Shown here one piece after another: positions 87 to 13,970 of a DNA stretch of 41,691 nt. The DNA is taken from assembly GCA_005799495.1 (NCBI GenBank), contig SYGP01000042.1:1-41691 (forward strand), in the 5' to 3' direction. A program made the position numbers and the translations under genes. The stretch is from Planctomycetia bacterium. Its GTDB lineage: Bacteria > Planctomycetota > Phycisphaerae > Phycisphaerales > SM1A02. Every line of letters starts with the position of its first letter. Within the stretch, counting starts at the first letter, position 1. The notes under the pieces are model-generated. The model worked only from the letters and a program-made list of their open reading frames with translations, made no database searches and was not told where the DNA came from.

Positions 87-150
87 ACGCCTCGCCGCTG
101 CGTGCGCGGCCAAGTACCGCCGCGCCGCGGTTTGCATAGCCTTGAGGGTC

Positions 151-876
151 ATGCGAACAACAGTTGCCATCGTCGCCGCGTCGGTGCTCTCGAGTGCCCT
201 GACGGCGTTCCTTCTCAAGGTGGATCAGCCCGCGGGGGCGATTTCGGCGTCGGCCATGGGCGACCTCGGTCCTGCCGATGCACTTGTGCTGAGCGGAAAG
301 GACGGCACGCTCACCGTGAGCAATCGCAGCGGGCGTGTGAGCTGGGCAGAGGACGCGACCGCGCGGAGCCATTCGGTTGGCACGCTGCATGTCGGTCGGA
401 TCATGTCGGCGCTGTTGCAATCCGATGCATTCACGAGGGAGCGCGAGCAGATCGCCGAGGCGAACGAGGCAAGGGGCAAGGAGTTCGAGGCGCGTTACCG
501 ATCGCTCGTCGAGAAGGCGCGATCCATGGACAAGGATTCGCCCGACATGCCAGCCGCGCGCGAGGAGTTCGAGGCGTTCCAAGCGGAGTTCTCCGCCTGG
601 AACGAAGCCACGCAGGCGGAGGCGGAGGCACTGCAGTCGCGCCAGTACCAGGATGCGTATTCGCGGCTGCGCGATGCGGTGGATGTCGTCGCTGATCGAC
701 GCAAGATCGATCTCGTGCTCCGCTTCATTCCACCCGCGGACAAGATCCGCCCTGGCGACCAGGACGCGATCGTGCAGCAAATGATGAGCCGGACATTCGT
801 GCGCGTTCCAGAGTCGATCGACATCACGGATGACATCCTGCGCGAGATGAACCTGACCGCGCCCAAGGAGGAGTGA
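151..876 (+). CDS. OmpH/Skp-like membrane-anchored protein, copy 1
   Basis: About 241 residues. A hydrophobic N-terminal segment (residues 3-19) acts as signal peptide or anchor. A short module containing LGPADALVLSGKD (about 38-50) follows, then a Skp-type core beginning near VGTLHVGRIM with a long charged helical stretch (about 95-185) expected to form a coiled coil, and a conserved tail around RRKIDLVLRFIP. Skp/OmpH proteins are periplasmic holdase chaperones for outer-membrane proteins. The helix pattern supports that family, while the anchor and the N-terminal module are additions. ATG 151 is preferred over TTG 142, which would add only three residues. The gene is followed without a gap by a paralogue, indicating tandem duplication and co-translation. 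Confidence 0.62.
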   Translation: MRTTVAIVAASVLSSALTAFLLKVDQPAGAISASAMGDLGPADALVLSGKDGTLTVSNRSGRVSWAEDATARSHSVGTLHVGRIMSALLQSDAFTREREQIAEANEARGKEFEARYRSLVEKARSMDKDSPDMPAAREEFEAFQAEFSAWNEATQAEAEALQSRQYQDAYSRLRDAVDVVADRRKIDLVLRFIPPADKIRPGDQDAIVQQMMSRTFVRVPESIDITDDILREMNLTAPKEE

Positions 877-1601
877 TGCGTCCAGTGATTGCACGTTCTT
901 TCGGTGCGTTGCTCGCGGGCGCGGCGGGTGCGCTCGTGGCCTGGATCATCGGCGGCACGAGCGTCGATGCCACGCGTCTGCTGCCAGCAGATCTCGGACC
1001 GGCGGACGCGCTCGTGTTGAGCGGCAAGGATGCGCCGCTGGTCGTTCGCAACAGTGAGGGTCGCATCGGATGGTCGGAGGATCCCACGGCGCGCGCATGG
1101 AGCGTCGGGTGCGTTCAACTCGATCCAGTCATCAAGGCGATTCTGGCGACGGACCGCTACACGGAAGAGCGAAAGACATTCGAGCAGGAGGCGCAGTCGC
1201 AAGGGGAGACATTCGAACAGCGCGACAAGGCGCTGCGGGCGAAGTACCCGGATATCAAGACGGACGACCCGAATTTCAATCAGGCGCGCGATGAGTTCGT
1301 GGCGCTGCAGCAGGAGTTCGAGAAATGGCGGCTCGCGCTGCAGCAGATTCAGTCGAAGCACATGGCGGAGCAGATCGAGAAGGCGTACCGCGAGATGCTT
1401 TCGGCGCTCGAGGTGGTTGCCGATCGACGACGCATCGATCTCGTCTTTCGGTTCATCCCCGCCGATCGTCCTTTCGAGGCGGGCGATGTCGGCGCGGTCA
1501 TGGTCGCCGTGCAAGCGCGTCCGTTCCTGCGACATCCGCAGGGGATGGACCTGACGGACGACATCTTCAAGGAACTCGGCTTGCAGCGCCCCGACCGCTG
1601 A
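876..1601 (+). CDS. OmpH/Skp-like membrane-anchored protein, copy 2
   Basis: About 241 residues and clearly paralogous to the gene before it. It shares the hydrophobic N-terminus (GALLAGAAGALVAWIIGG), the module LGPADALVLSGKD, the phrase W(A/S)ED-TAR--SVG, a long Q/E/K-rich helix, and the C-terminal block VVADRR-IDLV-RFIP. The ATG overlaps the upstream stop as TGATG, and an AAGGAGG ribosome site lies at 866-872, so translation is probably coupled. A role as an envelope chaperone is inferred from Skp similarity. Two similar subunits side by side would fit a hetero-oligomer, since Skp itself is a trimer, but this is speculation. The next gene converges 6 bp downstream. Confidence 0.62.
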   Translation: MRPVIARSFGALLAGAAGALVAWIIGGTSVDATRLLPADLGPADALVLSGKDAPLVVRNSEGRIGWSEDPTARAWSVGCVQLDPVIKAILATDRYTEERKTFEQEAQSQGETFEQRDKALRAKYPDIKTDDPNFNQARDEFVALQQEFEKWRLALQQIQSKHMAEQIEKAYREMLSALEVVADRRRIDLVFRFIPADRPFEAGDVGAVMVAVQARPFLRHPQGMDLTDDIFKELGLQRPDR

Positions 1602-1607
1602 CGCAGC

Positions 1608-2360
1608 TCACTTCACGGCAGGTTTGCCGTTCATCGGCAGTCGGCGCAGCTCGCCGATCGGAGTGGTCAGCGCCACGGTCTCGGTCGACTTGCTTCCATC
1701 AGCGTTTGGCGCGCTCGGGCGCTGCACGGGAAGGCATCGCAGCGGCGCGTCGCGCTCTTCGCCGCGGAAGAGTTGGATCACCTTGCCGTCGAATGTCCAT
1801 CGACCGCTCACCACCGAGGGCTGGGCCGAGGAGTTCGGCGGGGGCGCAGCCGTGAGCGAATAGGAACCATCCGCGCGAAGATCGAGCGTGCCGCCGGGGC
1901 CGTTCCAACGACCGACATGCGCATCCTCGGGTGCGAGCGGCGGCGTCGTGGACTGCGCGAGACCCGCTGCATCGCCCACATCGAGAAGCAGAACGCCCTC
2001 CGTGCGCCGCAGGGCGCAGCGGGTGCGGGGGGGCGCGTTCCCCGGCGTCTTGGGGTCGAAGTACGGTTCGATCCAGAATGTGCGGTAGTTCTGGCGGTGC
2101 CAACGGCCGCGCTTCGTGGGCTCGCGGTAGCGGTTGGGTTGATCCCACATCAGGAACGAGCCGTCGCCCCGAACCGAAAGCAGCACCGAGCCATTCGACC
2201 ACCATCCCGACACATCGATCTGCTCGGTGGGATCGATGTCCAGTTTCGCACCTTTGGGGATGATCGGCGGCGCAGACTGCTGTGCGAATGCCGAGCCAAC
2301 GAAGGGCGCGAAGAGCACCGACACAAGCAAGGAAGCAACGGCAGGAAGTGATCGTCTCAT
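1608..2360 (-). CDS. Secreted beta-rich protein of unknown function
   Basis: About 250 residues, starting at ATG 2360, which overlaps the rimO stop as ATGA. The N-terminus is a typical signal peptide (MRRSLPAVASLLVSVLF, with a likely cleavage after AFAQ), so the protein is exported. The mature part shows two related beta modules: one around DVSGWWSNGSVLLSVRGDGS with a later GRWH, and one around VGRWNGPGGTLDLRADGSY with a later SGRWTFDGK. This G-W...DGS...GRW rhythm resembles small lipocalin-like or META-like barrels but no family is recognised. It is the last gene of the leftward nadD-rimO operon. Upstream in-frame starts (to 2450) would bury the signal peptide and are rejected. Confidence 0.6.
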   Translation of the reverse strand: MRRSLPAVASLLVSVLFAPFVGSAFAQQSAPPIIPKGAKLDIDPTEQIDVSGWWSNGSVLLSVRGDGSFLMWDQPNRYREPTKRGRWHRQNYRTFWIEPYFDPKTPGNAPPRTRCALRRTEGVLLLDVGDAAGLAQSTTPPLAPEDAHVGRWNGPGGTLDLRADGSYSLTAAPPPNSSAQPSVVSGRWTFDGKVIQLFRGEERDAPLRCLPVQRPSAPNADGSKSTETVALTTPIGELRRLPMNGKPAVK

Positions 2361-3925
2361 GATCGAAGCACGGGAAGCGGAATCGACGGGTCGAGATCGC
2401 TCGTGGGTTGCGCAATCAGATCGTAACCGTCGGCATCCACAACCGTGCACCGAACCAGTTCGCCAGGCGTCAAAGGTGAACGGCTCGCCACATGCGTCAC
2501 GCTGTCGATCTGCGGCGCTTGGTGGTAAGCGCGCCCGACATGCAGATGCAGTTTGCCGCGCGTGACGCCCGTGGTCGCGCGACCCTGTGCGCGCGCGGTC
2601 GAAGCCGAATCAATCAGCACATCGAACTCCGACCGCTGATCCGCCACGAAGCGCGCGTTCTCGAACGCGATCGACTGCTGCAGCTGCATGATCTCCGCCT
2701 CGCGGCGCGTCGCAACTTCTGCATCCACGCGGAGCGACGGGTCTGCGTGCATCGTGCCCGAAGGCGTTCCATCCTCGGGCGAGTAGCGGAACACACCGAG
2801 CGCATCGAACTGCGCTCGCTCGATGAACGCGCAGAGGCGTTCATGATCCTCCTCGGTTTCGCCGGGATGGCCCGTGATGAAAGTCGTGCGGATCGCCATG
2901 CCGGGAATCCGCTCGCGCAGTTCTTCGACGACGCGTTCCTGCTGAGCCGCAGTCACATGGCGACGCATCCTCTCCAGCATGCGGTCCGTCGCGTGCTGCA
3001 GCGGCATGTCGATGTACTTCACCACGCCAGAGAGCCGCGCAATCGCACGCATCATTTCGCTCGTGAAGTTCGACGGATACGCGTACATCAGGCGCAGCCA
3101 TCCGCTGCCGTGCTCCTGCACCACGCCATCGAGTCGCTCGAGCAGCCCGACCAGCCCCGACGCATCGCCGATGTCCATCCCCCAACTTGTCGTGTCCTGC
3201 CCGATCAGGTTCAACTCGAACGCGCCATCGCGCATCAGCCCGCGCGCCTCTGCCGCCACGGCGTCGGCGGACTTCGAGCGCATCTTGCCGCGGATCGACG
3301 GGATGGTGCAGAACGAGCAGCGCTGATTGCATCCCTCGCTCACGCGCAGGTACGCCCAGTGGCGCGGCGTCAGGCGGAAGCGACCTTCGTCACCCTCGAA
3401 GTAGCCGATGCCCAGTCCATCCTTGCCATGCACCGTCAGTCCGACCGTTTCGCGCCCGCGCTCCGCAGCGGCGAGCAGCGCATTCGAAGAGATCCAGTAC
3501 CCAGGTCGTTCCGTTGCATCACCCAGCCCCTCGCGCTCGGCACGCTCGCCGCGCACGGCATCCACCACATGATCGCGGTCGAAGACGCCAATGAGCGCAT
3601 CGATGCCGGGCGCCCACTCCAACATCTTCGCACGGTGGCGCTGCACCAGACAGCCCGCCACGACCACACGCTTCAGTTCGCCGCGCTTCTTGCGCTCGAT
3701 CGCTTCGCGGATCACCCCGAGCGATTCATCCTTGCTCGCCTCAAGAAAACCGCATGTGTTCACCACCAGCGCATCGGGCTTCTGATCCTCGTTCACGAGT
3801 CGAAGCCCATCCGCGGCGAGCAGCCCGAGCATCTTCTCGCTGTCGACCAGATTCTTGGGGCAGCCGAGGCTCACGAACGCCACGCGTTCAACGGCATCAC
3901 TCGTGTGTTTCTTGGCGGCGGGCAT
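2357..3925 (-). CDS. rimO: Ribosomal protein S12 methylthiotransferase RimO
   Basis: RimO adds a methylthio group to a conserved aspartate of ribosomal protein S12, using two iron-sulfur clusters and SAM. About 522 residues. The UPF0004 domain is seen at VAFVSLGCPKNLVDSEKML with further cysteines in NTCGFLEAS and VVAGCLVQRH. The radical-SAM motif CNQRCSFC gives Cys199, Cys203 and Cys206. A C-terminal TRAM-like segment follows. The protein is longer than usual (430-470 residues) because of an insert of roughly 50 residues between the UPF0004 and radical-SAM domains (around ERPGYWISSNALLAAAERG). SLGCPKNLVDSE favours RimO over MiaB. The start at ATG 3925 overlaps the upstream NadD fusion by 29 bp and the stop overlaps the next gene by 4 bp, indicating a tight operon. 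Confidence 0.93.
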   Translation of the reverse strand: MPAAKKHTSDAVERVAFVSLGCPKNLVDSEKMLGLLAADGLRLVNEDQKPDALVVNTCGFLEASKDESLGVIREAIERKKRGELKRVVVAGCLVQRHRAKMLEWAPGIDALIGVFDRDHVVDAVRGERAEREGLGDATERPGYWISSNALLAAAERGRETVGLTVHGKDGLGIGYFEGDEGRFRLTPRHWAYLRVSEGCNQRCSFCTIPSIRGKMRSKSADAVAAEARGLMRDGAFELNLIGQDTTSWGMDIGDASGLVGLLERLDGVVQEHGSGWLRLMYAYPSNFTSEMMRAIARLSGVVKYIDMPLQHATDRMLERMRRHVTAAQQERVVEELRERIPGMAIRTTFITGHPGETEEDHERLCAFIERAQFDALGVFRYSPEDGTPSGTMHADPSLRVDAEVATRREAEIMQLQQSIAFENARFVADQRSEFDVLIDSASTARAQGRATTGVTRGKLHLHVGRAYHQAPQIDSVTHVASRSPLTPGELVRCTVVDADGYDLIAQPTSDLDPSIPLPVLRS

Positions 3926-5318
3926 GCGGAGACATCGTAGGCGCGGGCGGCGATTCCGCCCCTTGGTACAGCCGCCGCTCGCGAATGAAACGCGCCACCG
4001 CAGGGTCGAGCAGATCACTCGTCGCAGCCAGCGCCCGAGTGGCATCGCCGCGCCACTGCGCGCGAACCTCGGTCGCCGCCAGCGGGATCGCAGGCATCGG
4101 CAGCACGGCGCGCGCCCAGGCATCGCCATCGCAACCAAGGGCGGCGAACTTCTCCCGCAGCGCATTCGCCAGTGAACGCGCATCCCACGGCGGACGCGGT
4201 ACCACTGCCACGCGCGCAAGCTCATCCGAGATGCGCCGCCACGAATGCCAGCGGTCGAACTGCATCGCCTGATCGGCACCGATCAGCAGCACAAGATCGG
4301 CGCGCGTCAGCCGATCCCGTGCAGCCACGAAGGCGAGCGTTTCCACCGTGAAGGACTCGCCTTCACGCTGCGTCTCGAACGCGTCCACCTCGGCGCCCGG
4401 GACCTGCGAAAATGCAAGCCGCACCATCGCCAGTCGCTGCTCGCGCGTCGCGCCGCCATCGTCGCCTGCTGCGCGCAGCGGCGCGCGTCCCGCAGGCACC
4501 ACGACAATCCGCGCACATCCGAGCACCCGAGCCGCATCCACTGCCATCCGCACATGCATGCGGTGCGGCGGATCGAAGGTGCCGCCGAAGAGCAGCGTCC
4601 GTCGCGTGGTGGCCGCAACCGCAAGATGCGCCGCCGCGCCTCCGACGCGCGCAAGCACCCGACTGCACAGCGCGCCCGCGCGCGCGAGCATCACGGCACG
4701 CAGCGGTGATGCCAGAAGCGCGCGCATCAATGCGCTGCCCACAAGCGATCCATCCACGCCGACCAATGCCGTCATCCAGGCAGGCAACTCATCCGCCACG
4801 CCATCACTCACACCGCGCACGATGCCGAACCGCCATCCCAAGGCACTCGCCATTTCGCAGAACCCACCCGACTCCACATCCACGAGATCACATCCCGTGC
4901 GCGCGTGGAGCGCTTCCTTCTGCGCACGACTTCCCACCACACGCTCGACCGATGCCACGCATGCGGATGCGGCGCTCGGCACACCTGCCGCGCCGACCGT
5001 GGGATGGAACACGCGGCCATCGCTCGACACAACCTTCGAAGCGCACCACACCGATCCGCGCACAAACGGCGGACGCAGTCCACCCGCCAAACCAGCGAGC
5101 AAGACGATCGCGCCGCGTGCAGGCAAGACGCCACCACGCGCACGCTCCTGCGCTGCCCATCGGGTCACTGCGTGCGCACCCACGCCAATGCACCGCACCT
5201 CTGCAGCGCAGCCGGCCTCACCGAGCGCCGCGCGCACGCGTGCAGCTTCGAACGCCGTGGGGCAGAGCACCGTCACCACATCCGCCCGAGCCATTGCCTG
5301 ATCCATCATGCCCATCAT
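3897..5318 (-). CDS. nadD: Nucleoside phosphorylase-like / NadD fusion protein
   Basis: About 473 residues in two domains. Residues ~10-235 look like the PNP/UDP phosphorylase (MTA/SAH nucleosidase, HpnG-like) fold: LLAGLAGGL for the phosphate/glycine loop, then DLVDVESGGFCEMA and VRGVSDG, matching the family's (D/V)-M/V-E-S and R-SD motifs. Residues ~238-455 are nicotinate-nucleotide adenylyltransferase: LLFGGTFDPPHRMH (the GGTFDPxH nucleotide-binding motif), then ESFTVETLAFV, LIGADQAMQFDRWHSWRRI, and a terminal LDPAVARFIRERRLY. NadD makes nicotinic acid adenine dinucleotide for NAD synthesis. The phosphorylase half may act on a nucleoside linked to NAD or SAM turnover, but its substrate is unknown. 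ATG 5318 follows a GAAGG-like site; ATG 5294 is an alternative. An earlier start at 5366 would run into the tRNA gene. Confidence 0.85.
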   Translation of the reverse strand: MMGMMDQAMARADVVTVLCPTAFEAARVRAALGEAGCAAEVRCIGVGAHAVTRWAAQERARGGVLPARGAIVLLAGLAGGLRPPFVRGSVWCASKVVSSDGRVFHPTVGAAGVPSAASACVASVERVVGSRAQKEALHARTGCDLVDVESGGFCEMASALGWRFGIVRGVSDGVADELPAWMTALVGVDGSLVGSALMRALLASPLRAVMLARAGALCSRVLARVGGAAAHLAVAATTRRTLLFGGTFDPPHRMHVRMAVDAARVLGCARIVVVPAGRAPLRAAGDDGGATREQRLAMVRLAFSQVPGAEVDAFETQREGESFTVETLAFVAARDRLTRADLVLLIGADQAMQFDRWHSWRRISDELARVAVVPRPPWDARSLANALREKFAALGCDGDAWARAVLPMPAIPLAATEVRAQWRGDATRALAATSDLLDPAVARFIRERRLYQGAESPPAPTMSPHARRQETHE

Positions 5319-5319
5319 C

Positions 5320-5347
5320 TTGCCTTCAATGTTCGCAACGCTATACT
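5320..5347 (+). promoter_or_regulatory. Sigma70-type promoter for the tRNA-Glu genes
   Basis: TTGCCT at 5320-5325 and TATACT at 5342-5347 are separated by 16 bp, and the first tRNA begins 11 bp after the -10 box. This is a good match to a housekeeping promoter in an otherwise GC-rich region. It abuts the start of the divergent NadD fusion gene at 5318, so the two transcription units share this short region. Confidence 0.55.
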
Positions 5348-5358
5348 CTTTGCCCGTT

Positions 5359-5432
5359 GGCCTCATCGTCTAGCCCGGCTAGGACACATCCCTCTCACGG
5401 ATGGAACAGGGGTTCAAATCCCCTTGGGGTCA
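5359..5432 (+). tRNA. tRNA-Glu (anticodon CTC)
   Basis: A 74-nt cloverleaf can be folded. The acceptor GGCCTCA pairs with TGGGGTC with two G-U pairs, and the discriminator is A5432. The D stem is GTC/GAC, the anticodon stem CATCC/GGATG encloses the loop CTCTCAC, and the T arm contains GGTTCAAATC. The anticodon CTC at 5394-5396 reads the glutamate codon GAG. The 3' CCA is not encoded. The gene is followed 96 bp later by a second tRNA-Glu. Confidence 0.95.
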
Positions 5433-5528
5433 TTCGATTCGGCAGCTCGCAACTGTCACAGGAACGCCTCGCACCGAACACCAACGGATTCAACTGAAGA
5501 GTGCGCAAGGTGCGGCGCATTCAGTCTC

Positions 5529-5603
5529 GGCCCCATCGTCTAGCCTGGTCCAGGACACCTCCCTTTCAAGGAGGACACATGGGTTCAAATCCCATTGGGG
5601 TCA
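5529..5603 (+). tRNA. tRNA-Glu (anticodon TTC)
   Basis: A 75-nt cloverleaf. The acceptor GGCCCCA pairs with TGGGGTC, and the anticodon stem CCTCC/GGAGG encloses the loop CTTTCAA. The anticodon TTC at 5565-5567 reads GAA and GAG. The T arm ATGGG/CCCAT encloses TTCAAAT. The discriminator is A5603 and CCA is not encoded. It differs from its neighbour mainly in the anticodon arm, D loop and T stem. It is the last core gene before the accessory methyltransferase insert, consistent with tRNA genes bordering insertions, although no tRNA 3'-end duplication is seen on the far side. Confidence 0.95.
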
Positions 5604-5657
5604 TTCGCGCGCGGGTTCACCGCGCACCCGCAGCGCGCGTTGACCGCGCGCGCCCTC

Positions 5658-5752
5658 GGCATGCACCCTGCTGGGGCTCAGACAGTTTCGCCCGCTCCAC
5701 GGACCTGCGGTCCGCGTTCGCGGGCTCGAGAACTCGCCCAGCAGGGGATGCC
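5658..5752 (+). repeat. Palindromic repeat element, left copy
   Basis: A ~95-bp element bounded by inverted arms (GGCATGCACCCTGCTGGG at the left, CCCAGCAGGGGATGCC at the right) that can fold into a long hairpin. Its interior (5670-5692, then 5694-5701 after one mismatch) recurs almost unchanged on the opposite strand at 8145-8175, so the two copies are inverted with respect to each other. The stretch 5604-5853 has no gene. It holds this element, the 29-bp direct repeat next to it, and a GC-alternating run at 5608-5655. Confidence 0.8.
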
Positions 5753-5757
5753 TCGGG

Positions 5758-5786
5758 CGCGCGCGGGCGAGCGCACAACACCGAGC
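5758..5786 (+). repeat. 29-bp direct repeat, left copy
   Basis: The 29-bp sequence running from CGCGCGCGGGCGAGCG to ACACCGAGC is identical to 8036-8064 in the same orientation. Together the two copies bracket the methyltransferase gene and its convergent partner. They lie just inside the two inverted palindromic elements, so the bracket is symmetrical in position. Confidence 0.85.
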
Positions 5787-5853
5787 TGAATCGGCCAGTT
5801 GGAGGCTGGGCAAGAAGTGTTGTTTCGATGAATTAGTCCGTTACCCTTGGGAC

Positions 5854-7260
5854 ATGAAAACGACCGCGGCATCGTTTCGGTTTGTGGACCTGTTTGCCGG
5901 AATCGGAGGTTTTCATCACGCGTTGGCGCGTCTTGGTGGTCGATGCGTGATGGCCTGTGAGATTGACCGCGAGTGTCGGGCGGTTTACTCCCACTCGTTT
6001 CGTGGCAACGGGCACTACGATTTCGTGGAGAACATTCGAAGTCTGACCCGAAAGGCAATCGATGACGAGTCCTCAGAACTTTCGATTGATGAGATCAGGA
6101 ACAAGGTGCCGGACCATGATGTGCTCTGTGGCGGTTTTCCATGCCAGCCGTTCTCCAAGTCTGGTGCTCAACGTGGTACTCACGACCGAACTCGTGGCAC
6201 GCTGTTTCACGACATTTTGCACATTTTGCGCGCGAAGACACCACGGTTTGTCATCTTGGAGAATGTCCGGAACCTAGCCGGTCCGCGCCACCGCGACACA
6301 TGGCAGACAATCATCGACTCGCTTCGCGAGATTGGATATAGGGTTGCTTCGGAGCCCGTGATCATGAGTCCGCACTTGATACCTCCAGAACAGGGCGGAA
6401 CACCGCAAGTGCGCGATCGGGTGTTCATTCTTGGGGAGTTTGTTGGATTGGGAATGGTTCGTGGATTGCTCTCACCACCGCTCCTTCATCGCACATGCTT
6501 TCCCGATTGGGATCCTGACCAATGGCGGATCAGCACACTGTTGGATCAGGAGCGATCCATCCCAGGCATCAGCCAGTACCGAGTAAGGCCTGAGGAGAGA
6601 GTTTGGCTAGACGCTTGGGACGAGTTTGTCCGCGAGATCCCGTGCGATGCTCTGCCAGGATTCCCGATTTGGGTGTCCGCATTCTGTACCACTCCCAACC
6701 TGCGCGAAGGCATGCCCGACTGGGAGCGAGACTTCGTAGTAAAGAACTCGCACTTCTATTCTTCCAATCAAGCATTTATCGATCAATGGCTCCGCCGTAC
6801 CAGGGGCAGCAAGGGAGAAACGGTGAGGGACTTTCCACCGTCTCGCCAGATGTTCGAGTGGCAGGCGCGCAAGGTTCACCCAACTCGACACGGTCGGACG
6901 ATTCAGGATTTAGTCATTCAGATGCGACCAAGCGGAATTCGCGTAAAGCCACCTACCTATCTTCCCGCCTTGGTCGCAATCAGTCAGACGTCCATCGTGG
7001 GACCGAAAGTTGCAGATCTTGCCGAATACCGCAGGCTTACGCCACTTGAGGCAGCCCGGCTGCAGGGGATCTCTGGTGATGTGTTTCTGGCGGCTGGAGT
7101 TTCTGACCGCGCTGCCTACAAACAACTTGGCAATGCGGTGAATGTGGGGGTGGTAGCACTTGCTGCAAAGACACTCATGAACTCGGCCCGCTCACATGAC
7201 ATTGAGGACCATCCGGATCTGTCTGTCACCTTGTTTGGTGCGCTCTCGTCCGCGTCTTAA
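5854..7260 (+). CDS. DNA (cytosine-5-)-methyltransferase
   Basis: A 468-residue C5 cytosine DNA methyltransferase, which transfers methyl from SAM to C5 of cytosine in a short recognition site. Conserved motifs appear in order: I, FVDLFAGIGGF (10-20), for SAM binding; IV, GGFPCQPFS (93-101), with nucleophile Cys97; VI, ENV (136-138); VIII, QVRDRVFIL (185-193); a variable target-recognition region (about 200-390); then LTPLEAARLQG and the motif X region AYKQLGNAVNVGVVALAAKTL near the C-terminus. All catalytic residues are present. Base composition is visibly less GC-rich than the flanks and codon use is less biased, pointing to transfer. It ends tail to tail with the next gene, overlapping by four bases. 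Probably the modification half of a type II system; a solitary methylase is the alternative. Confidence 0.95.
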   Translation: MKTTAASFRFVDLFAGIGGFHHALARLGGRCVMACEIDRECRAVYSHSFRGNGHYDFVENIRSLTRKAIDDESSELSIDEIRNKVPDHDVLCGGFPCQPFSKSGAQRGTHDRTRGTLFHDILHILRAKTPRFVILENVRNLAGPRHRDTWQTIIDSLREIGYRVASEPVIMSPHLIPPEQGGTPQVRDRVFILGEFVGLGMVRGLLSPPLLHRTCFPDWDPDQWRISTLLDQERSIPGISQYRVRPEERVWLDAWDEFVREIPCDALPGFPIWVSAFCTTPNLREGMPDWERDFVVKNSHFYSSNQAFIDQWLRRTRGSKGETVRDFPPSRQMFEWQARKVHPTRHGRTIQDLVIQMRPSGIRVKPPTYLPALVAISQTSIVGPKVADLAEYRRLTPLEAARLQGISGDVFLAAGVSDRAAYKQLGNAVNVGVVALAAKTLMNSARSHDIEDHPDLSVTLFGALSSAS

Positions 7261-7928
7261 CTTTGAACGGGTCTGATGGCATCTGGTCCAGCGTGCCAAA
7301 TGCTGACACAGCGTGATCGGCCCCTCTCGGGGTCGAAGGAAAAAGGGAGGTGGAGGCCGGCGTTGCGTGATTCGCGCAGGCAACGGCGAACATCCTCGGC
7401 TGCAAAGATGCTGTCGGACTTGTTGTTCGACTTTAGAGTTACGCCGATTAGGGCTGTTACTGGTATGACATAAACGCCTTGACCGATGCCGTCCCATGAC
7501 CGTGAGCGAGGACTAGGTTGGCGGGTGACAACCACAACAATGGAGGACTCGAACCGCGTTCGCTGGCGGCCTCCTTTGGGGTTCTTTGACCAAGCGAGGG
7601 CCAAATCTCCATTTCCCCGCCACCCAATTGTTTTGTGGGACAGGGGATAGGACTCCCAGTAGTAGTCGTAGTCATCAGTAGATGTGGTTCCCGGTGGTGG
7701 GGCTCGATGAAAAGCAGACGAACCCGCCTGAAGCATGTCGATCCAGATCTTTTCCTGTTCGATTCCTCCCGTGAGTCCCGCCCCTTTCGTGCCACTGTTT
7801 TGGCTCTGAAGTACTGCAACGAGATAAAGAAAGTGGCTTAAGTAATCCGTGCCGTCGATCCTTCGACAGTCGAGCACCCTCGCAATCTCGTCAAGCGCTC
7901 CGCGACAAGCATCGTCATGTCCTCCCAT
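7257..7928 (-). CDS. Unknown protein convergent with the methyltransferase; candidate restriction partner
   Basis: A 223-residue protein with no signal peptide or membrane segment. The N-terminal ~70 residues include CRGALDEIARVLDCRRIDGTD and read as helical. The middle has an aromatic/acidic run STDDYDYYWESYP, then NGDLALAW, a strand-like ESSIVVVVTR, then GVYVIPVTALIGVTLKSNN and a helical tail. No clear PD-(D/E)xK, HNH or GIY-YIG motif is visible. NGDLALAW...ESSIVVVV is the nearest to a nuclease core but lacks the expected lysine after the glutamate. Its link to restriction rests on position (4-bp stop overlap with the methylase, shared low-GC insert, shared repeat bracket). A TAG lies a few codons upstream in frame, so ATG 7928 is the first possible ATG. 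Confidence 0.5.
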   Translation of the reverse strand: MGGHDDACRGALDEIARVLDCRRIDGTDYLSHFLYLVAVLQSQNSGTKGAGLTGGIEQEKIWIDMLQAGSSAFHRAPPPGTTSTDDYDYYWESYPLSHKTIGWRGNGDLALAWSKNPKGGRQRTRFESSIVVVVTRQPSPRSRSWDGIGQGVYVIPVTALIGVTLKSNNKSDSIFAAEDVRRCLRESRNAGLHLPFSFDPERGRSRCVSIWHAGPDAIRPVQS

Positions 7929-8035
7929 TGCCCCGTGAGGCTACTCAACGCCAGACAAATGGATTGAAGTCGAGCCTTTCCTCACGGAACTGGTGATGAA
8001 TTCCTCATGCGACGGTGGAAGAATTGATCCCCGAC

Positions 8036-8064
8036 CGCGCGCGGGCGAGCGCACAACACCGAGC
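8036..8064 (+). repeat. 29-bp direct repeat, right copy
   Basis: Identical to 5758-5786 and in the same orientation; it marks the right inner boundary of the methyltransferase insert. The surrounding stretch 7929-8290 contains no convincing gene. It holds this repeat, the right palindromic element, and about 90 bp of unremarkable sequence before the next start codon. Confidence 0.85.
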
Positions 8065-8083
8065 CGAAGCGCGCCCCGCGGGT

Positions 8084-8193
8084 GGGCTGCGGCATGCCTG
8101 TGCTGGGCGAGTTGTTGAGCCTGCGAACGCGCGGCGCCAGCCGCGTGGAGCAGGCGAAACTGTCTGAGCCCCAGCACGGCCATGCCGCAGCCC
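8084..8193 (-). repeat. Palindromic repeat element, right copy (inverted)
   Basis: Arms GGGCTGCGGCATGCC (8084-8098) and the matching GGCCATGCCGCAGCCC (8178-8193) can form a hairpin stem of over 20 bp with few mismatches. Read on the minus strand, the interior matches the left element at 5658-5752: a 23-nt identical block (8153-8175), then one mismatch, and further identity near the far end ending CTCGCCCAGCA. Short reading frames across both elements are by-products of the repeat and not genes. Confidence 0.8.
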
Positions 8194-8290
8194 AATCGGC
8201 GTGGGAATGGATGCGTTCTGGCCCTTTATCACTCAAAATGCCTCGCCTCGTGCTTGCAGATCAATGAGGCTGGGGTAGGTTGCGTGACCT

Positions 8291-9757
8291 ATGCGAAGTG
8301 CAGTTTCTTGTGTTGCGGCCGCTTTGGTTGCAGTCTTGGCGGGTCGCGCGGAAGCAGCGGTGCGCTATGTCAATGTCGCTCTTGCTGGCGGATCGGACAA
8401 TGGCACCAGTTGGGCCGACGCCTACCGCACCGTTGACGGCGTGTCGCGCGCGCTCGCCGCATCCGTGTCGGGCGACCAAGTGTGGGTCGCCGCGGGGACA
8501 TACAAGCCGACCGCCGGCACTTCGCGAACGGTGTTCATCACGCTCAAGACAGGTGTTGCCGTGTACGGCGGATTCGCTGGAACGGAAACCGAGGTGTCGC
8601 AGCGAAGCGTGAGCGGGAATGTCACGGTGCTGAGCGGCGATCTGTCGGGGAACGACAACGGCACGACGACCAACTTGGCGGACAACTCGTATCACGTGGT
8701 GGTCGGCAGCAGCGTGGCGACTTCTGCGGTGCTGGATGGGTTCACGATCCGCGGCGGATATGCCAATGGGGCGACTGGGTCGAACTACGACAAGGGTGGC
8801 GGCATCCTGGTGCTGACGAATGGCAACCCCACCGTGCGGAACTGCCGTTTCATCGGGAACCGCTGCACATTCGGTGGAGGCGCGGGGTACATCTTCGGCG
8901 CGAACGGCAGCTTCGTGGACTGCGAGTTCACCGACAACATCGGTGGCACCTACGGCGGCGCGTTCGATACGAATGGAACGACGGTGCGCTGGGAGCGCTG
9001 CTTGTTCCGCAACAATCAAGCGTCGCGCGCCGGGGCGATCGAGTCGTACGGCAGTTCGCAGACCACGATCATCAACTGCGTGTTCGTGCTCAACCGCGCG
9101 ACGACTTCCAACTCGGGCGGCGCGGTCTGGGCAGGCACGAGTTCGGCGGTGACGGTGCGCAACAGCACATTCGTCGGCAATTCGGCGGCTGCGACCTCGG
9201 GCGGTGGTTTCTACAACACGAGCGGCACGAGCACGATTGCCAACTGCATCTTCTGGGCGAACACCGGAAACGGCGGAGCGACCGCGAACAATCAGGTGAC
9301 GGCGGCTGGCGGAACGAACACGGTCTCTTACTCACTGGTGCAGGGTGGCATCACGGGGACAGGCAACATCTCGACCACGCCGACCTTCGTGGATCAAGCC
9401 GCGTACAACCTGCGTTTGCAGCCGACATCTGCTGGTATCGATGCGGGGAGCAATGCACTGATTCCCACGGGCGTCACCGTTGACTTCGACAGCAATCCGC
9501 GTCGCGTCGACATCGCTGCCGTCACGGACACGGGCATTGGCGGCGCACCCGTGGTGGACATGGGCGCCTTCGAAGTGCAGCCACCTCCGCCGCCCGCGTG
9601 CCCAGCGGATCTGGACAACGATGGCATGGTCGGTGGGACCGATCTCGCGTCGATCCTCTCGGGGTGGAGTACGGCGGACGGCGATGTGAACGGCGACGGT
9701 ACGACCGATGGTGCCGATCTGACCGAAGCACTGAGCGCCTGGGGACCGTGCTCCTGA
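8291..9757 (+). CDS. Secreted right-handed beta-helix protein with dockerin-like C-terminus
   Basis: 488 residues. The signal peptide is MRSAVSCVAAALVAVLAGRAEA. The start of the mature protein (AVRYVNVALAGGSDNGTSWADAY) is typical of Pel/Pmp-like beta-helix proteins. The core carries repeating coils with N-C-x-F and GGA/GGG turns (VRNCRFIGNRC, FVDCEFTDN, WERCLFRNN, IINCVFVLN, IANCIFWAN), each about 20-30 residues. After a poly-proline linker (QPPPPPAC) comes a duplicated calcium-binding-type segment, ADLDNDGMVGGTDLASILSGW and GDVNGDGTTDGADLTEALSAW, similar to dockerin loops and common at the C-termini of secreted Phycisphaerales proteins. The beta-helix may bind or cleave polysaccharide; no catalytic site is evident. 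The tail probably serves sorting or attachment. Confidence 0.85.
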   Translation: MRSAVSCVAAALVAVLAGRAEAAVRYVNVALAGGSDNGTSWADAYRTVDGVSRALAASVSGDQVWVAAGTYKPTAGTSRTVFITLKTGVAVYGGFAGTETEVSQRSVSGNVTVLSGDLSGNDNGTTTNLADNSYHVVVGSSVATSAVLDGFTIRGGYANGATGSNYDKGGGILVLTNGNPTVRNCRFIGNRCTFGGGAGYIFGANGSFVDCEFTDNIGGTYGGAFDTNGTTVRWERCLFRNNQASRAGAIESYGSSQTTIINCVFVLNRATTSNSGGAVWAGTSSAVTVRNSTFVGNSAAATSGGGFYNTSGTSTIANCIFWANTGNGGATANNQVTAAGGTNTVSYSLVQGGITGTGNISTTPTFVDQAAYNLRLQPTSAGIDAGSNALIPTGVTVDFDSNPRRVDIAAVTDTGIGGAPVVDMGAFEVQPPPPPACPADLDNDGMVGGTDLASILSGWSTADGDVNGDGTTDGADLTEALSAWGPCS

Positions 9758-9773
9758 ATCCAGTCTGTCGCCA

Positions 9774-9793
9774 CGAGGGACTTCGGTCCTTCG
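9774..9793 (+). terminator. UUCG-capped hairpin after the beta-helix gene
   Basis: CGAGGGAC and GTCCTTCG pair as an 8-bp stem (one G-U) closed by a TTCG tetraloop, 16 bp after the stop at 9757. No T-run follows, so it is not a full intrinsic terminator. It may protect the 3' end of the mRNA or assist Rho-dependent ending. Confidence 0.35.
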
Positions 9794-9825
9794 CGCATCA
9801 CTAGCATCGAGGGGCGGCTGCGCCC

Positions 9826-10497
9826 ATGATGCGATACACACTTCACGAGCAGGGGAATGCGCCCCGTGATTGGCCGAGTGAGCGATTCGAGGCGCTCTGG
9901 TGCGATGTTGCTGCGGCATCCGGCTCGGGTGCGTTCACGGCGGAAGCGGCTGGCCGGCTGCCCGTGGTGGCGATGCCCGATTGGTCGAATCCGCCGCTCG
10001 ATTCGTGGGTCTGCGTGGAGGGCAGGTTGGAACAGCGCGTGCCGATGGGCGAAGTGCACCGTGGTGGCGAGGAGTGGTTCGTGCGCGGCGTTTCGGGTGT
10101 GCCTGTCGCGGCCTATGTGATGGACGCGCCGCCAACGGATGTGGGTGAACGCGTGCGCGTCGTGGGGCGAGTGATCGGTCCGCTGCGGCTTGCGGACCGG
10201 CGCGGTGAGATGCGCGAGTATCCCGCGGTGATCGGCAAGGCAGTGGTGAATGCCGACGGTCGCGCGGCGATGCTTGCGCAGGAGAACAGGGGGATGGGCG
10301 GTGGCACGTCGTGGCCGCTGGTGTCAGGCGGCGCGGTGTTGGTACTGCTCGTGGCGTGGTTCGTGCTTCGGCGTTTCCTTCGCCCGAGCGGTGGTGTGCG
10401 TGCGATTCATGCAGCGGCTGCTGCGGCGCGGGTGGGCAGTGGGCAGTCGGCGAGTCCTTCATGTGCGCCGAGTGGTTCGAGTGGAGGCCGCGCGTGA
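9826..10497 (+). CDS. Predicted membrane protein of unknown function, upstream of aroB
   Basis: About 223 residues. One clear transmembrane segment lies near the C-terminus (SGGAVLVLLVAWFVLRRFL, about 166-184), followed by a low-complexity Ala/Ser/Gly tail. The region before it has a beta-strand pattern (SWVCVEGRLEQRVPMGE..., ERVRVVGRVIGPLRLADRRGE, PAVIGKAVV) that suggests an OB-like barrel, reminiscent of the soluble domain of GIDE-type membrane proteins; this is inferred from pattern only. There is no signal peptide, so a C-tail-anchored topology with the globular part in the cytoplasm is plausible. Two adjacent ATGs (9826, 9829) are possible starts. The stop overlaps the aroB ATG (TGATG), implying co-translation. 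Confidence 0.55.
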   Translation: MMRYTLHEQGNAPRDWPSERFEALWCDVAAASGSGAFTAEAAGRLPVVAMPDWSNPPLDSWVCVEGRLEQRVPMGEVHRGGEEWFVRGVSGVPVAAYVMDAPPTDVGERVRVVGRVIGPLRLADRRGEMREYPAVIGKAVVNADGRAAMLAQENRGMGGGTSWPLVSGGAVLVLLVAWFVLRRFLRPSGGVRAIHAAAAAARVGSGQSASPSCAPSGSSGGRA

Positions 10498-11624
10498 TGC
10501 GTGAGTTGACGCAAGTCTGTGGCGGGAACGCCGCACCCGTCGTCGTCGGCAGTCGACTGGCTGAGGCCGCCGCGGCGCGCTGCCTGTCGCTGCGGGGCGG
10601 CGCTGCGCCGACGAGCGTGCTGCTCATCTTCGACGCTGCCGTGGCTCGTTCAGCGGTGGAGCCTTTCGTGAAGGCGCTCCTGTCGGCGCAGCCGAAGTTG
10701 GTCGTTCACCGCATGGCGGTCGAGGCATCGGAGCGTACGAAGGTCGGCGAGGAGTGGTTGCGGTTGCAGCGCGATGCGGTCGCCGTTGGCGCGGACCGTG
10801 GTGCGCTGCTGATCGCCGTCGGCGGCGGCGTGGTGACGGATATCGGCGGTTTTGTTGCGGCGAGCCTGCTGCGCGGCATCGACTGGGCTGCGATGCCGAC
10901 GACGCTCCTGGGCATGGTCGACGCTGCGCTTGGCGGCAAGACCGGCGTCAATGTGCGTCTGGGCGATGGACGGTTGGTGAAGAACATGTGCGGTGCGTTC
11001 TGGCCACCACGGCTTGTCGTGAGCGATGTGTCCCTGCTGTCCACGCTGCCTGTTCGTGAACTGCGCTCTGGCCTCGCCGAGTGTGTGAAGCACGCACTGT
11101 TGGCGGATGCAACGCTCGCCGAGTGCTTGCCCGCTGCCGTGGCAGACGCGCGGGACGCGGGGCAAGCTGCGCAGTCGCGATTGGTCGACCTTGTGGCGCG
11201 TTCTGCGCAGGTGAAGTTGGGCATCGTCGAGTCGGATCCGCGTGAGGACGGCCGGCGGATGCTCTTGAACCTCGGTCATACCTTTGGGCACGCCATCGAG
11301 GGGCTCGTGCCCGACGAGATGCTGCACGGCGAAGCGGTTGCGGTGGGGCTCGTGGCGGCTGCGGCGGCATCGGTGGAAGCAGGTCTGATGGCGCGCGGGG
11401 AGGCTGACGCCGTTCGCGCGATGGTGGAGGGGCTTGGGTTGCCGACGCAGTTGCCCTCGCCGCTCGAGGTGGATGTGCTGCTGCGCGTGGCGGGTTCGGA
11501 CAAGAAGCGCCGCGGCGGCGCATGGACACTGATCCTGCCGCGCGGCGGTGGCGGGGCGGAAATCCTTCGCAACGCGGAGGAGCGATTGCTTCGGGTCGGG
11601 TTCGCGGCGGTCGGCGCGACGTGA
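10497..11624 (+). CDS. aroB: 3-dehydroquinate synthase
   Basis: AroB converts DAHP to 3-dehydroquinate, the second step of the shikimate pathway, using NAD+ and a divalent metal. About 375 residues, the normal length. Family motifs are GGGVVTDIGGFVAAS (NAD-binding glycine segment), PTTLLGMVDAALGGKTGVN, a central LRSGLAECVKHALL, and the metal site NLGHTFGHAIE with His261 and His265, followed by HGEAVAVGLVAA. The ATG at 10497 overlaps the preceding stop and places the first residues at MRELTQVCGG. The longer frame from 10311 reads through the upstream gene and is rejected. A short 55-bp gap separates it from the ParA gene. Confidence 0.95.
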   Translation: MRELTQVCGGNAAPVVVGSRLAEAAAARCLSLRGGAAPTSVLLIFDAAVARSAVEPFVKALLSAQPKLVVHRMAVEASERTKVGEEWLRLQRDAVAVGADRGALLIAVGGGVVTDIGGFVAASLLRGIDWAAMPTTLLGMVDAALGGKTGVNVRLGDGRLVKNMCGAFWPPRLVVSDVSLLSTLPVRELRSGLAECVKHALLADATLAECLPAAVADARDAGQAAQSRLVDLVARSAQVKLGIVESDPREDGRRMLLNLGHTFGHAIEGLVPDEMLHGEAVAVGLVAAAAASVEAGLMARGEADAVRAMVEGLGLPTQLPSPLEVDVLLRVAGSDKKRRGGAWTLILPRGGGGAEILRNAEERLLRVGFAAVGAT

Positions 11625-11679
11625 GTTTCTCCGCTGCTTCAAGGATTCGGGCTGAGTCGGTCGATTCCTTTGGAACAGC

Positions 11680-12696
11680 ATGCGTGTGATTGCCGTGGTC
11701 AACCAGAAGGGTGGAAGCGGTAAGACCACCTCCGCCGTCAACCTGTCCGCCGTACTCGCTGCGCGCGGACAGCGGACGCTGCTGATCGATCTCGATCCGC
11801 AAGGGCACTGTGGCGTGGCGCTTGGCGTTCCCGTCTCGCGGATCGAGACGGGGATCGAATCGGCGCTTCTGCAGGGAGCCGGGTCTTCGCTGCTTGACGA
11901 TGGGTTGCTGTGGGAGCCGACACCAGGGCTGGCGCTCGCCCCATGCACGGTGCAGTTGGCGGCGCTCGAGGCGCCGGACGGTCCTCTGCAGGAGGCGCCT
12001 GACCGGGATCGCCGCTTGGCTTCGCTGCTCGACCGGCTGGCACCGCGCTTCGAGTGGTGCGTGATTGATTGTCCGCCGCACATCGGGCTGTTGGTCTTCA
12101 ACGCGCTGCGTGCCTGTGATGAGGCGATCATCCCCATCGAGACGGGTTACTTCGCCTTGCGCGCTGCGGAGCGGCAGGTGGCGACGATTCGCACGGTGGC
12201 GGAACGGCTTGGGCGTTCCATCGCGATTCGCGTCCTCCCGACGCTCGTGCGCGGCTCATCGCGGATTTCGCAGGACATTCTTGCGTCGATCCGCCGCAAC
12301 TTCGGCGACGATGTGTTGCCGACGATGATCCACGAACACGATGTGCTGCGCGAGGCGGCGGGATTCGGGCAGCCCGTGACGGAGTACGCACCGACATCCG
12401 ATGCGCGGCGCGACTTTGATCGTTTGGCGGATTGGCTGGTGGCGAACACCGCGCTGGTGCAGCGAGCAGGTGGAGTTCCTGCGGGTACCGCGGATGCATC
12501 GCCCGATGCCGCATTGATGGCGCAGTTGGCTGCGCCCCGTGCGTCGACGCGCGCGGTGGAGCCGCCGTTGGTGGAGATGCCGGATATGCCCGTCGTGCCA
12601 CAGGCGAAGGAGGGCAGGCTGGGTGAGGTCGCCGCGCGCTTGCGTGGCACTGCGTCTGGTGCGGAGAACATCGCGCCCATGGACCGAAGCGCATGA
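11680..12696 (+). CDS. ParA/Soj-family ATPase
   Basis: 338 residues. A deviant Walker A motif KGGSGKTT occupies residues 10-17, followed by LLIDLDPQGH and CVIDCPPHIG, so this is a ParA/MinD-type ATPase that dimerises with ATP and binds DNA or membrane as a positioning switch. The domain ends near residue 260. The last ~75 residues are low-complexity and Pro/Ala-rich with no known fold. No parB-like gene or parS-like repeats lie next to it. Instead it overlaps (ATGA) with an unknown protein. It may be an orphan ParA that positions some other cargo rather than the chromosome; Soj cannot be excluded. Confidence 0.85.
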   Translation: MRVIAVVNQKGGSGKTTSAVNLSAVLAARGQRTLLIDLDPQGHCGVALGVPVSRIETGIESALLQGAGSSLLDDGLLWEPTPGLALAPCTVQLAALEAPDGPLQEAPDRDRRLASLLDRLAPRFEWCVIDCPPHIGLLVFNALRACDEAIIPIETGYFALRAAERQVATIRTVAERLGRSIAIRVLPTLVRGSSRISQDILASIRRNFGDDVLPTMIHEHDVLREAAGFGQPVTEYAPTSDARRDFDRLADWLVANTALVQRAGGVPAGTADASPDAALMAQLAAPRASTRAVEPPLVEMPDMPVVPQAKEGRLGEVAARLRGTASGAENIAPMDRSA

Positions 12697-13970
12697 GCAG
12701 CCGCGCGAGTGATTTCGATGGCCTCGCGGATCTCTTCATGAGCGGCGGTGGCGCGCGCCGCGGCGATGCGTCTTCGAACGCGGGAGGCGGGAGTTTTGGG
12801 GCAGGCGCCGCGGAGGCTGCGGGCGCTGCACCTCGCGTGCTGCTCGTGGGAAATGTGCCAACGCTCGCGGGGATCTGGATTGCGCAGTATGCAGACCAGT
12901 GCGCGCGTGCGGATGGTCCGATCGCACTCATCCGGCTCGATGGGGCGGCGACTCGCGGTGAGGTCTACCGCAGCGAGGGGCGTGCGCTGCCGAGCGATGG
13001 CAGCGCATGGCTCGAGCGCGCGAGTGCGTTTGCGCGCCGATGGATTGTCTGTCTTGATTCGCTCACCGACGCGGCAGTCGTGATGGATGCGGGCGGTGAG
13101 ATCGTGCTGCTCAGTGGGACCGATGAGACTGCGATGGCTGCTGCGCGCCGAACGATTGAATCGCTCGGGACCGCAGCCGCTGCTCGCGGCAGCGTTCTTG
13201 CACTGGGTCTCGCGCTCGTGGGCTGTTCGCATGATGCAGCGGATTCGGCGGTGCAGTCGCTGGTCGAGTGGTCGCGAGGCAAGTCGATCGGCGTTCGGTT
13301 GACGCTCGCGGCGCACGCGCAGCGTGTGGACCGCGTGGAGTCGTCGGGCCCTGTGCCGCTGAGTGTGCTCGGCGCGCTCGACCCGGCAAGCGCGATCGAG
13401 ATGGTGACCATGGCGATGCGGGGGAACCCATCGCGCCGCAGTGAGCGTGATGTGCCGCGGCTGCGCATCGATAACCCGCGCGCTGGCGATGTTCACGGCG
13501 CCGAAGCGCCACCGCCACCGCCAGCGCCCGCGCCAGTCGCCGCGCCCGCGCCAGTCGCCGCGCCAACGTCAGTCGCCGCGCCAGCGGTAGTCAACGATGC
13601 GATCGATCTTTCGGCGCTCTTTCCAGAACTGCAGGCGCTTGCGTTCCACTGCCCAGATGCGCCGCGGGTCTTGCTGGCGGTGGATGCGCGCGGACTTCAT
13701 CTGCTCGCGGGCGAAAGCACCGCCGCGGATCTTCGGGTCGCCGCCGCATGGGCGCGTGCAAACTGGGCGCTTCTCTGCGCAGCCGTGCCGGCGCTTGCCG
13801 CGTGCAATGCAATCACCGAGCATCTGCTGCTGAGCGATGCTGCACATGCCGTGGGTTTGCATCGCAGCGGCGTTCTGCTGCACGCGGCGATCGACTTCGA
13901 TGTCGGCGGTCGCGTGATACGGCGGCGAGTCGATCTCAACAACGAGCAGAGCGCGGCTGGGCCGCGCTGA
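12693..13970 (+). CDS. Unknown protein translationally coupled to ParA
   Basis: About 425 residues, not recognised. The N-terminus (ASDFDGLADLFMSGGG) is a short conserved-looking motif that could dock to a partner. Residues ~45-245 form an alpha/beta domain starting RVLLVGNVPTLAGIWIAQYADQ, which resembles the first strand of a ParA or P-loop fold but has no Walker lysine. A Pro/Ala linker (about 272-300) built from an 18-bp DNA repeat leads to a second small alpha/beta domain (about 303-425; LFPELQALAFHCPDAPRVLLAVDARGLHLL). No signal peptide or membrane segment is seen. The ATGA overlap with the ParA gene suggests a dedicated partner or cargo adaptor. The 3' end overlaps the convergent dipeptidase gene by 35 bp. 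Confidence 0.6.
   Translation: MSSRASDFDGLADLFMSGGGARRGDASSNAGGGSFGAGAAEAAGAAPRVLLVGNVPTLAGIWIAQYADQCARADGPIALIRLDGAATRGEVYRSEGRALPSDGSAWLERASAFARRWIVCLDSLTDAAVVMDAGGEIVLLSGTDETAMAAARRTIESLGTAAAARGSVLALGLALVGCSHDAADSAVQSLVEWSRGKSIGVRLTLAAHAQRVDRVESSGPVPLSVLGALDPASAIEMVTMAMRGNPSRRSERDVPRLRIDNPRAGDVHGAEAPPPPPAPAPVAAPAPVAAPTSVAAPAVVNDAIDLSALFPELQALAFHCPDAPRVLLAVDARGLHLLAGESTAADLRVAAAWARANWALLCAAVPALAACNAITEHLLLSDAAHAVGLHRSGVLLHAAIDFDVGGRVIRRRVDLNNEQSAAGPR
13533..13586 (+). repeat. Three tandem 18-bp units encoding a PVAAPA linker
   Basis: Units of 18 bp at 13533-13550, 13551-13568 and 13569-13586 differ at a few positions and encode PVAAPA, PVAAPT and SVAAPA. They form the flexible linker of the ParA-coupled protein and are prone to copy-number change by slippage. 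Confidence 0.75.

What the first reader, a model, noticed from the sequence alone, without database searches (positions are those of the whole stretch)
5658..8193. Methyltransferase island bracketed by a 29-bp direct repeat and inverted palindromic elements
The C5 methyltransferase and its convergent partner sit between identical 29-bp direct repeats (5758-5786, 8036-8064). Just outside these, ~100-bp palindromic elements occur in inverted orientation (5658-5752, 8084-8193) sharing a 23-nt identical block. The island lies directly after tRNA-Glu and is less GC-rich than its flanks. The symmetric bracket suggests insertion of a mobile restriction-modification unit, or a non-autonomous element pair that moves it. 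Alternatively the elements are a genome-wide intergenic repeat family and the bracket is chance.
Basis: partly seen in the sequence, partly recalled or inferred. Interest (0 to 1): 0.7.

Follow-up and report, generated by a model that had tools for sequence, protein, structure and literature searches.

The report
Swappable restriction-gene slot between hairpins
In a planctomycete genome, a DNA-methylation (restriction-type) gene unit sits in a small slot between two repeated hairpins, and a related species carries a completely different restriction system in that same slot, so the hairpins mark a place where such defence genes are exchanged.

Summary
An exact 29-bp direct repeat (5758-5786, 8036-8064; the only exact one of 25 bp or more in the window) and two inverted ~115-bp hairpins (palA, palB) bracket a GC-poor C5-methyltransferase unit. 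The hairpins are not the ends of that unit. They belong to a dispersed structured repeat family (8 copies in this genome, one of them partial; 4, 5 and at least 15 in three close relatives; weaker matches in seven more genus members) with covarying stems and nearly invariant loop strands, and no Rfam family. A palA-spacer-palB composite with a single repeat copy and no cargo exists at another locus of a relative (G009). In G009 the orthologous tRNA-Glu locus is collinear with the window on both sides (83% and 80.5% identity), but the bracketed segment is replaced by an unrelated type II R-M system (EcoRI-type adenine methylase plus GmrSD/HNH nuclease), joined at almost the same bases. In 10 of 13 assessable distant genus members the two flanks are directly adjacent; 3 carry other inserts. 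Best reading: R-M units are inserted and exchanged at a pre-existing hairpin composite. The 29-bp repeat is a duplicated palA 3' flank, either a long target duplication or the relic of a second palA. The 223-aa partner is an orphan, so its restriction role is inferred.

The parts
5358..5603 (+). tandem tRNA-Glu genes (ctc 5358-5433, ttc 5529-5603); conserved left flank of the slot
   Evidence: same synteny in relatives
5644..5766 (-). hairpin palA; conserved core 5667-5745 on the - strand
5758..5786 (+). left copy of the 29-bp direct repeat = right arm base of palA plus its 3' flank
   Evidence: a third copy with 2 mismatches in a 26-bp pattern lies beside a palB-type copy at G000:C50:24838
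5854..7260 (+). C5-cytosine DNA methyltransferase, 468 aa
   Evidence: PF00145 2e-58; PADLOC DruM2 4e-143; TIGR00675 dcm 5.5e-54
7257..7928 (-). convergent orphan ORF, 223 aa; candidate restriction partner (inferred from position only)
   Evidence: no hit in Pfam, NCBIfam, PADLOC, PDB; no clear relative
5783..8059 (.). segment replaced by an unrelated R-M system in G009:C27
   Evidence: blastn collinearity stops at 5782 and resumes at 8060
8036..8064 (+). right copy of the 29-bp direct repeat, directly before palB
8083..8194 (+). hairpin palB; conserved core 8099-8178 on the + strand
8291..9757 (+). dockerin-like protein gene (name from its C-terminal sequence, by eye; Pfam gives only a sub-cut-off DUF5123 match); conserved right flank of the slot
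   Evidence: 92% aa identical neighbour in G009 and homologues beside tRNA-Glu in other genus members

Best explanation
The island is a type II-like R-M (methyltransferase) unit that was inserted into the spacer of a pre-existing compound hairpin element (palA-spacer-palB) lying between tRNA-Glu and a dockerin-like gene. The hairpins belong to a genus-wide family of intergenic structured repeats and act as the landing pad, not as the ends of the unit. The insertion left palA's 3' flank on both sides as a 29-bp direct repeat. The slot has been filled more than once or its content exchanged, since a sister species holds an unrelated R-M system there. Shown: the family, a cargo-free composite (at another locus), the collinear flanks, the replaced cargo, the near-identical insertion point. 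Inferred: that insertion used homology or end joining rather than a recombinase, that the 29-bp repeat arose at insertion, and that the 223-aa partner restricts DNA.
For: Window 1-5782 and 8060-13944 align collinearly with G009:C27 at 82.9% and 80.5%; no match falls inside 5783-8059. The G009 segment encodes an EcoRI-type methylase (PF13651, 2.6e-125) and a GmrSD_N/HNH enzyme (PADLOC REase_II, 4.7e-82). Both inserts start within about 4 bp of the same point, after GCACAACACC in the spacer. Cargo-free palA-spacer-palB with one repeat copy at G009:C22. In 10 of 13 assessable distant genus members tRNA-Glu(ttc) and the first aligned residue of the dockerin-like gene are 67-204 bp apart; the other 3 carry other sequence there. 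Left and right repeats share two letters absent from the three other copies aligned, so they are each other's closest relatives. Hairpin family: 8 copies in G000, one partial.
Against: No empty composite is known at this exact locus; the empty composite is at another locus of another species. The G009 insert lacks a long duplication (at most CACC), so the two insertions need not share a mechanism. The right-hand repeat reads GACCGCGCGCGGGCG, as if a second palA had collapsed, a state also seen at C50b, so the repeat may predate the cargo. The partner ORF has no relatives, so the unit may be a solitary methylase. The genomes are in many contigs (50 for G000, about 110 for G009) and many hairpin copies lie at contig ends. 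The tRNA-Glu locus takes other inserts too, so the hairpins may not be the reason for the hotspot.
Confidence: 0.72

Rival explanations
1. The 29-bp repeat is the relic of a second, collapsed palA: the cargo lay between two direct palA copies (array palA-cargo-palA-palB, for instance after a single crossover of a palA-bearing circle), and the right-hand hairpin was later lost between its CGCGCGCG arms.
For: The right repeat is preceded by GAC, matching the left base of palA, giving a fused GACCGCGCGCGGGCG. At C50b in G000 the same FGE gene end runs straight into CCGCGCGCGCGGACGAACGC-palB, where G009 has a palA hairpin after the same gene end.
Against: The extra match is only 3 bases. The two repeats are identical, so they were duplicated or converted recently.
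Confidence: 0.35
2. Cargo exchange by homologous recombination in the flanks between related strains (allelic replacement of one filled slot by another), the hairpins only adding short homology.
For: Flanks are collinear and 80-83% identical. The palA cores at this locus carry palB-type segments in both genomes (G000 CTC with AAC, G009 GTT with AAC and the palB-type tip), which indicates exchange between the two hairpins.
Against: Does not explain how each R-M unit first entered the spacer at the same point, nor the 29-bp repeat.
Confidence: 0.3
3. The hairpins are attachment sites of an unknown cassette system (attC-like or single-strand recombined), and R-M, FGE and dockerin genes are its cassettes.
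For: Structured sites with nearly invariant loop strands and covarying stems. Different genes between hairpins: R-M units here, a choice-anchor gene segment at the E2 locus of G009 but not at that locus of G000, FGE and dockerin genes between hairpins in G006:C95.
Against: Orientation is mixed, no recombinase was recognised in the cargo, and attC boxes are not at the hairpin bases. No integron integrase search was run.
Confidence: 0.12
4. A tRNA-Glu integrative island with degraded integrase.
For: The tandem tRNA-Glu locus receives inserts in other genus members, one with a tyrosine-integrase gene (PF00589, L114).
Against: No 12-nt or longer piece of the tRNA 3' end occurs at window 7901-8300, and palA separates tRNA and cargo.
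Confidence: 0.05

Closest known systems
R-M units inserted with long target duplication (Nobusato et al. 2000; Furuta et al. 2010), known here through passages of PMC3874152 and PMC3031569; Furuta 2010 was asked for and is not held, Nobusato 2000 not looked up
   Same: R-M unit without its own transposase, flanked by a direct repeat longer than usual target duplications, absent from relatives.
   Different: Repeat is 29 bp rather than of the order of 100 bp; the target is a structured hairpin composite; the second R-M at the slot has no long duplication.
Small R-M integration hotspots and variable defence loci (PMC4176335, passages; Streptococcus suis locus PMC5398294, abstract)
   Same: Different defence systems at one chromosomal position in related genomes.
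   Different: Here the slot has a defined boundary, a repeated hairpin composite, and the exchange point is resolved to a few bases.
REP/BIME repeats with RAYT transposases (PMC3733652, passages)
   Same: Dispersed intergenic palindromes, sometimes paired in inverted orientation; such pairs resemble BIMEs.
   Different: About 115 bp with nearly invariant internal-loop strands, no GTAG/CGTC tag, few copies, no Y1 transposase found.

Membership tests
R-M insertion with long target duplication | direct repeat flanking the R-M unit that is single-copy in the empty site | tested here: inconclusive
   29-bp repeat; single in cargo-free composite G009:C22, but that is another locus
R-M insertion with long target duplication | complete R-M pair | tested here: inconclusive
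   MTase clear; partner ORF orphan
R-M insertion with long target duplication | no known transposase or integrase in the unit | tested here: met
   the two main ORFs are the MTase and the 223-aa ORF without a Pfam domain; shorter overlapping ORFs were not searched
REP/BIME | 20-40 bp palindrome with GTAG or CGTC tag | tested here: not met
   hairpins are 112-123 bp; neither tag nor its complement occurs in either
REP/BIME | Y1 (RAYT) transposase in the genome | tested here: not met
   PF01797 absent in 4 of 4 genomes
Integron attC cassettes | RYYYAAC / GTTRRRY boxes at the hairpin base (consensus recalled) | tested here: not met
   none in palA plus 15 bp either side; in palB one GTTRRRY inside the loop region, not at the base
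Integron attC cassettes | integron integrase in the genome | not tested
tRNA-integrating island | tRNA 3'-end copy at the far border | tested here: not met
Known structured RNA (Rfam 15) | match to a family at its gathering score | tested here: not met
   only tRNA passes; two sub-threshold matches (RpsF_leader 21.6 of 37 bits, isrG 16.4 of 100) overlap divergent copies

The most novel reading that the evidence does not exclude
The hairpins are recombination sites of an undescribed cassette system of this planctomycete genus: a trans-acting enzyme recognises the conserved loop strands (GGGCGAGTT / CTGTCTGAGCC) in the folded strand and swaps gene cassettes, among them R-M systems, between such sites.
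Probability: 0.12. Interest if true: 0.85.

Novelty: new variant of a known kind. Interest (0 to 1): 0.6.

Why it matters
How R-M systems without their own mobility genes enter chromosomes is an open question; small integration hotspots have been proposed (PMC4176335, passage). Here one such hotspot is resolved to a few bases, with two unrelated R-M systems in the same slot of related species, and it coincides with a structured repeat family for which I found no description. That makes testable whether folded repeats act as landing pads for defence genes.

Tried and rejected
Diversity-generating retroelement (suggested by FGE-domain genes beside hairpins): no RVT_1 in G000. REP with RAYT: no Y1_Tnp in 4 of 4 genomes. 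Known RNA family: none at gathering score. Phage or plasmid origin: the strict core pattern and a looser pattern found 0 viral contigs, and palB found no plasmid; the phage collection was not searched with the hairpin. Restriction identity of the 223-aa ORF: no relatives in GTDB contigs, plasmids, phages or viral contigs; in 392 phylum genomes only itself and six weak partial matches of 17-21 bits, each with stops inside; AlphaFold2 from one sequence gave mean pLDDT 31.2, unusable, so no fold search was run. MTase relatives at E 1e-40 or better occur in 4 of 391 other sampled phylum genomes (59-63% identity, and one 71% partial); p223 has no match near them better than E 0.82. A literature search for letters of the core motif found 18 papers, 15 listed, all on other subjects by title and abstract start (listing only); searches (listings) showed no paper on R-M insertion into such repeats.

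Consistent-orientation cis-regulatory RNA: considered and put aside, because the copies in G000 point both with and against their neighbours. Intrinsic terminators: no T-run follows palA or palB on either strand in 20 nt; the scan tool was not run.

Mends made on checking: G009's hairpin count is a lower bound; gaps in the empty sites are to the first aligned residue; genes in some inserts are unassigned.

Full report
What is in the window. The 29-bp repeat at 5758-5786 and 8036-8064 is exact and is the only exact direct repeat of 25 bp or more in the window. The hairpins at 5644-5766 (palA) and 8083-8194 (palB) fold far better than shuffles, z -5.65 to -7.31 on either strand with DNA parameters, and lie inverted to each other. 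Between them are a C5-methyltransferase (5854-7260; PF00145 2e-58; best PADLOC model DruM2 4e-143) and a convergent 223-aa ORF (7257-7928) without any recognised domain. Cargo GC is 0.554 against 0.649 for the window. The 29-bp repeat is not separate from palA: it begins in palA's right arm.

The hairpins are a dispersed family. In the window's genome (2.36 Mb, 50 contigs) palB finds 8 element copies at E of 1.4e-19 or better, palA and palB included and one of them partial; the other 16 of 24 listed matches are arm self-matches or short chance hits. The covariance model finds 8 as well. The 26-bp pattern from the repeat, up to 3 mismatches, occurs 3 times, the third with 2 mismatches beside a palB-type copy. 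In 40 relatives, 3 same-genus genomes (G003, G006, G009) have strong copies and one (G031) a marginal 62-bp hit; that search scored at most 7 candidates a genome, so its negatives are weak. A strict pattern over the GTDB species genomes (84,980 by the tool's description, contigs under 3 kb not held) gave 23 stretches: planctomycete MAGs WB4_1_1472, K_DeepCast_35m_m2_037 and M_DeepCast_65m_mx_236, plus MAGs labelled Betaproteobacteria and Verrucomicrobia that I take to be misbinned; the window's own genome may be left out of that scan. A covariance model built from 15 cores found matches in 12 of 301 genomes of the order: G000 8, G003 4, G006 5, G009 15 (equal to the 15 candidates scored, so at least 15), weaker matches (34.8-49.1 bits) in seven more same-genus genomes (up to 13 each) and one of 34.5 bits in another genus of the family.

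Structure. Of 24 complete cores (16 distinct types) I aligned 15 distinct ones and left out one type, the G009:C22 palB, whose tip stem is shortened. In these 15, 99.7% of 345 cells pair, 7 of 23 pairs change on both sides (4 of 500 shuffles reach this), 27 cells change on both sides and the covariation score is 0.253 (0 of 500 for each); against this, the number of further pair types (8) is not above shuffles (498 of 500 at least as high). Sliding the partner destroys the signal, but the structure was derived from these sequences. In 19 divergent matches (17 distinct) from 12 chosen stretches, aligned to the model and so fitted to it, 98.5% pair, 6 of 19 pairs change on both sides and further pair types are 11 (0 of 500 for each). 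The loop strands GGGCGAGTT and CTGTCTGAGCC stay nearly constant (GAGCGAGTT in C42-type copies) while stems and tip change. GA/GA steps flank several stems, my reading of the letters. Gene conversion between hairpin arms could also produce such covariation, so selection on RNA is not proven. No Rfam family reaches its gathering score over an element; two sub-threshold matches overlap divergent copies.

The slot. nadD, tRNA-Glu(ctc), tRNA-Glu(ttc) and the dockerin-like gene are neighbours across the genus (nadD: my name for the 3897-5366 gene; its homologue L068:607-2052 matches CTP_transf_like). Of 18 same-genus relatives, 10 (G001, G002, G005, G008, G011, G012, G014, G016, G017, G018) have tRNA-Glu(ttc) and the first aligned residue of the dockerin-like gene 67-204 bp apart (G008 has 2.6 kb on the nadD side instead); G004, G013 and G015 carry other sequence after the tRNA; G009 carries an R-M system; in G003 palA follows the tRNA, then other sequence, and the contig ends; G006, G007 and G010 could not be assessed. 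Window 1-5782 aligns to G009:C27 at 82.9% and 8060-13944 at 80.5%, with no match inside 5783-8059. The G009 segment (2,488 bp, GC 0.587) encodes an EcoRI-type adenine methylase and a GmrSD_N/HNH nuclease. Because the flanks are neighbours in the ten relatives, a chance misjoin in both assemblies is unlikely.

Insertion point. G009:C22 has palA, a spacer of some 40 bp with one repeat copy, and palB with no cargo after the E2 gene. Against it, the window's cargo starts after CACAACACCGAGC and the G009:C27 cargo after CACAACACC. The window has the 29-bp repeat on both sides; G009:C27 has at most CACC. The two window repeats share two letters not found in the three other copies aligned, so one was made from the other. 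Two routes fit: a long target duplication as described for R-M units (PMC3874152, PMC3031569, passages), or a second palA that collapsed between its CGCGCGCG arms, a state seen at C50b of this genome where G009 has a palA hairpin after the same gene end. I put the first ahead only slightly.

Other variable sites. At the E2 locus G009 has about 3.3 kb with palB and a choice-anchor gene where G000 has only a partial inverted palB; whether G000 has that gene elsewhere was not tested. In G006:C95 hairpins alternate with FGE and dockerin genes. In G003:C80 palA precedes an Mrr-type restriction gene, with a GmrSD-type gene further off. The 6 other copies in the window's genome have no recognised R-M gene beside them, so the hairpins are not specific to R-M. 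The palA cores at the tRNA-Glu slot carry palB-type segments in both G000 and G009, a sign of exchange between the two hairpins.

What stays open. No recombinase was recognised in the cargo; a search for trans-acting recombinases was not run. The 223-aa partner is an orphan, and the MTase relatives have no homologue of it beside them, so the window's unit could be a solitary methylase. The finding is a concrete case of the small R-M integration hotspots suggested in PMC4176335 (passage), tied to an apparently undescribed structured repeat; that it is undescribed rests on the Rfam searches and on paper searches only.

Noticed in passing
window 5358-5603 and L113, L114, L120, L124: The tandem tRNA-Glu locus takes other inserts in the genus: a tyrosine-integrase gene (PF00589, G013), an AAA_14/DUF4143 gene matching PADLOC PDC-S01 (G015), about 2 kb between the tRNAs and 1.1 kb after them with genes no call assigned (G004), and 2.6 kb on the nadD side, unassigned (G008).
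   Followed up: partly
L028:11635-14230, L030:10447-11544, L031:1-100, L064: FGE-sulfatase/dockerin paralogues lie beside several hairpins and near contig ends, with varying 3' ends by eye (L031:1-100 named by likeness to L030); no reverse transcriptase of family RVT_1 in G000.
   Followed up: partly
L177-L183 (G002, G011, G016): Divergent, longer versions of the hairpin occur in pairs about 200-530 bp apart, some next to GTGGCTGTATC-like short repeats.
   Followed up: no
L127, L136, L137, L139, L140: The element occurs in MAGs labelled Betaproteobacteria and Verrucomicrobia, which suggests misbinned planctomycete contigs; L139 holds what reads as a palA/palB chimera.
   Followed up: no
L028:10575-10653: A partial, inverted palB after the E2 gene, where G009 has the full palA-spacer-palB composite: hairpins seem to flip and shrink.
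   Followed up: partly
window 13524-13564: The only other exact direct repeat of 20 bp or more: 23 bp with an 18-bp offset, so a short tandem repeat.
   Followed up: no
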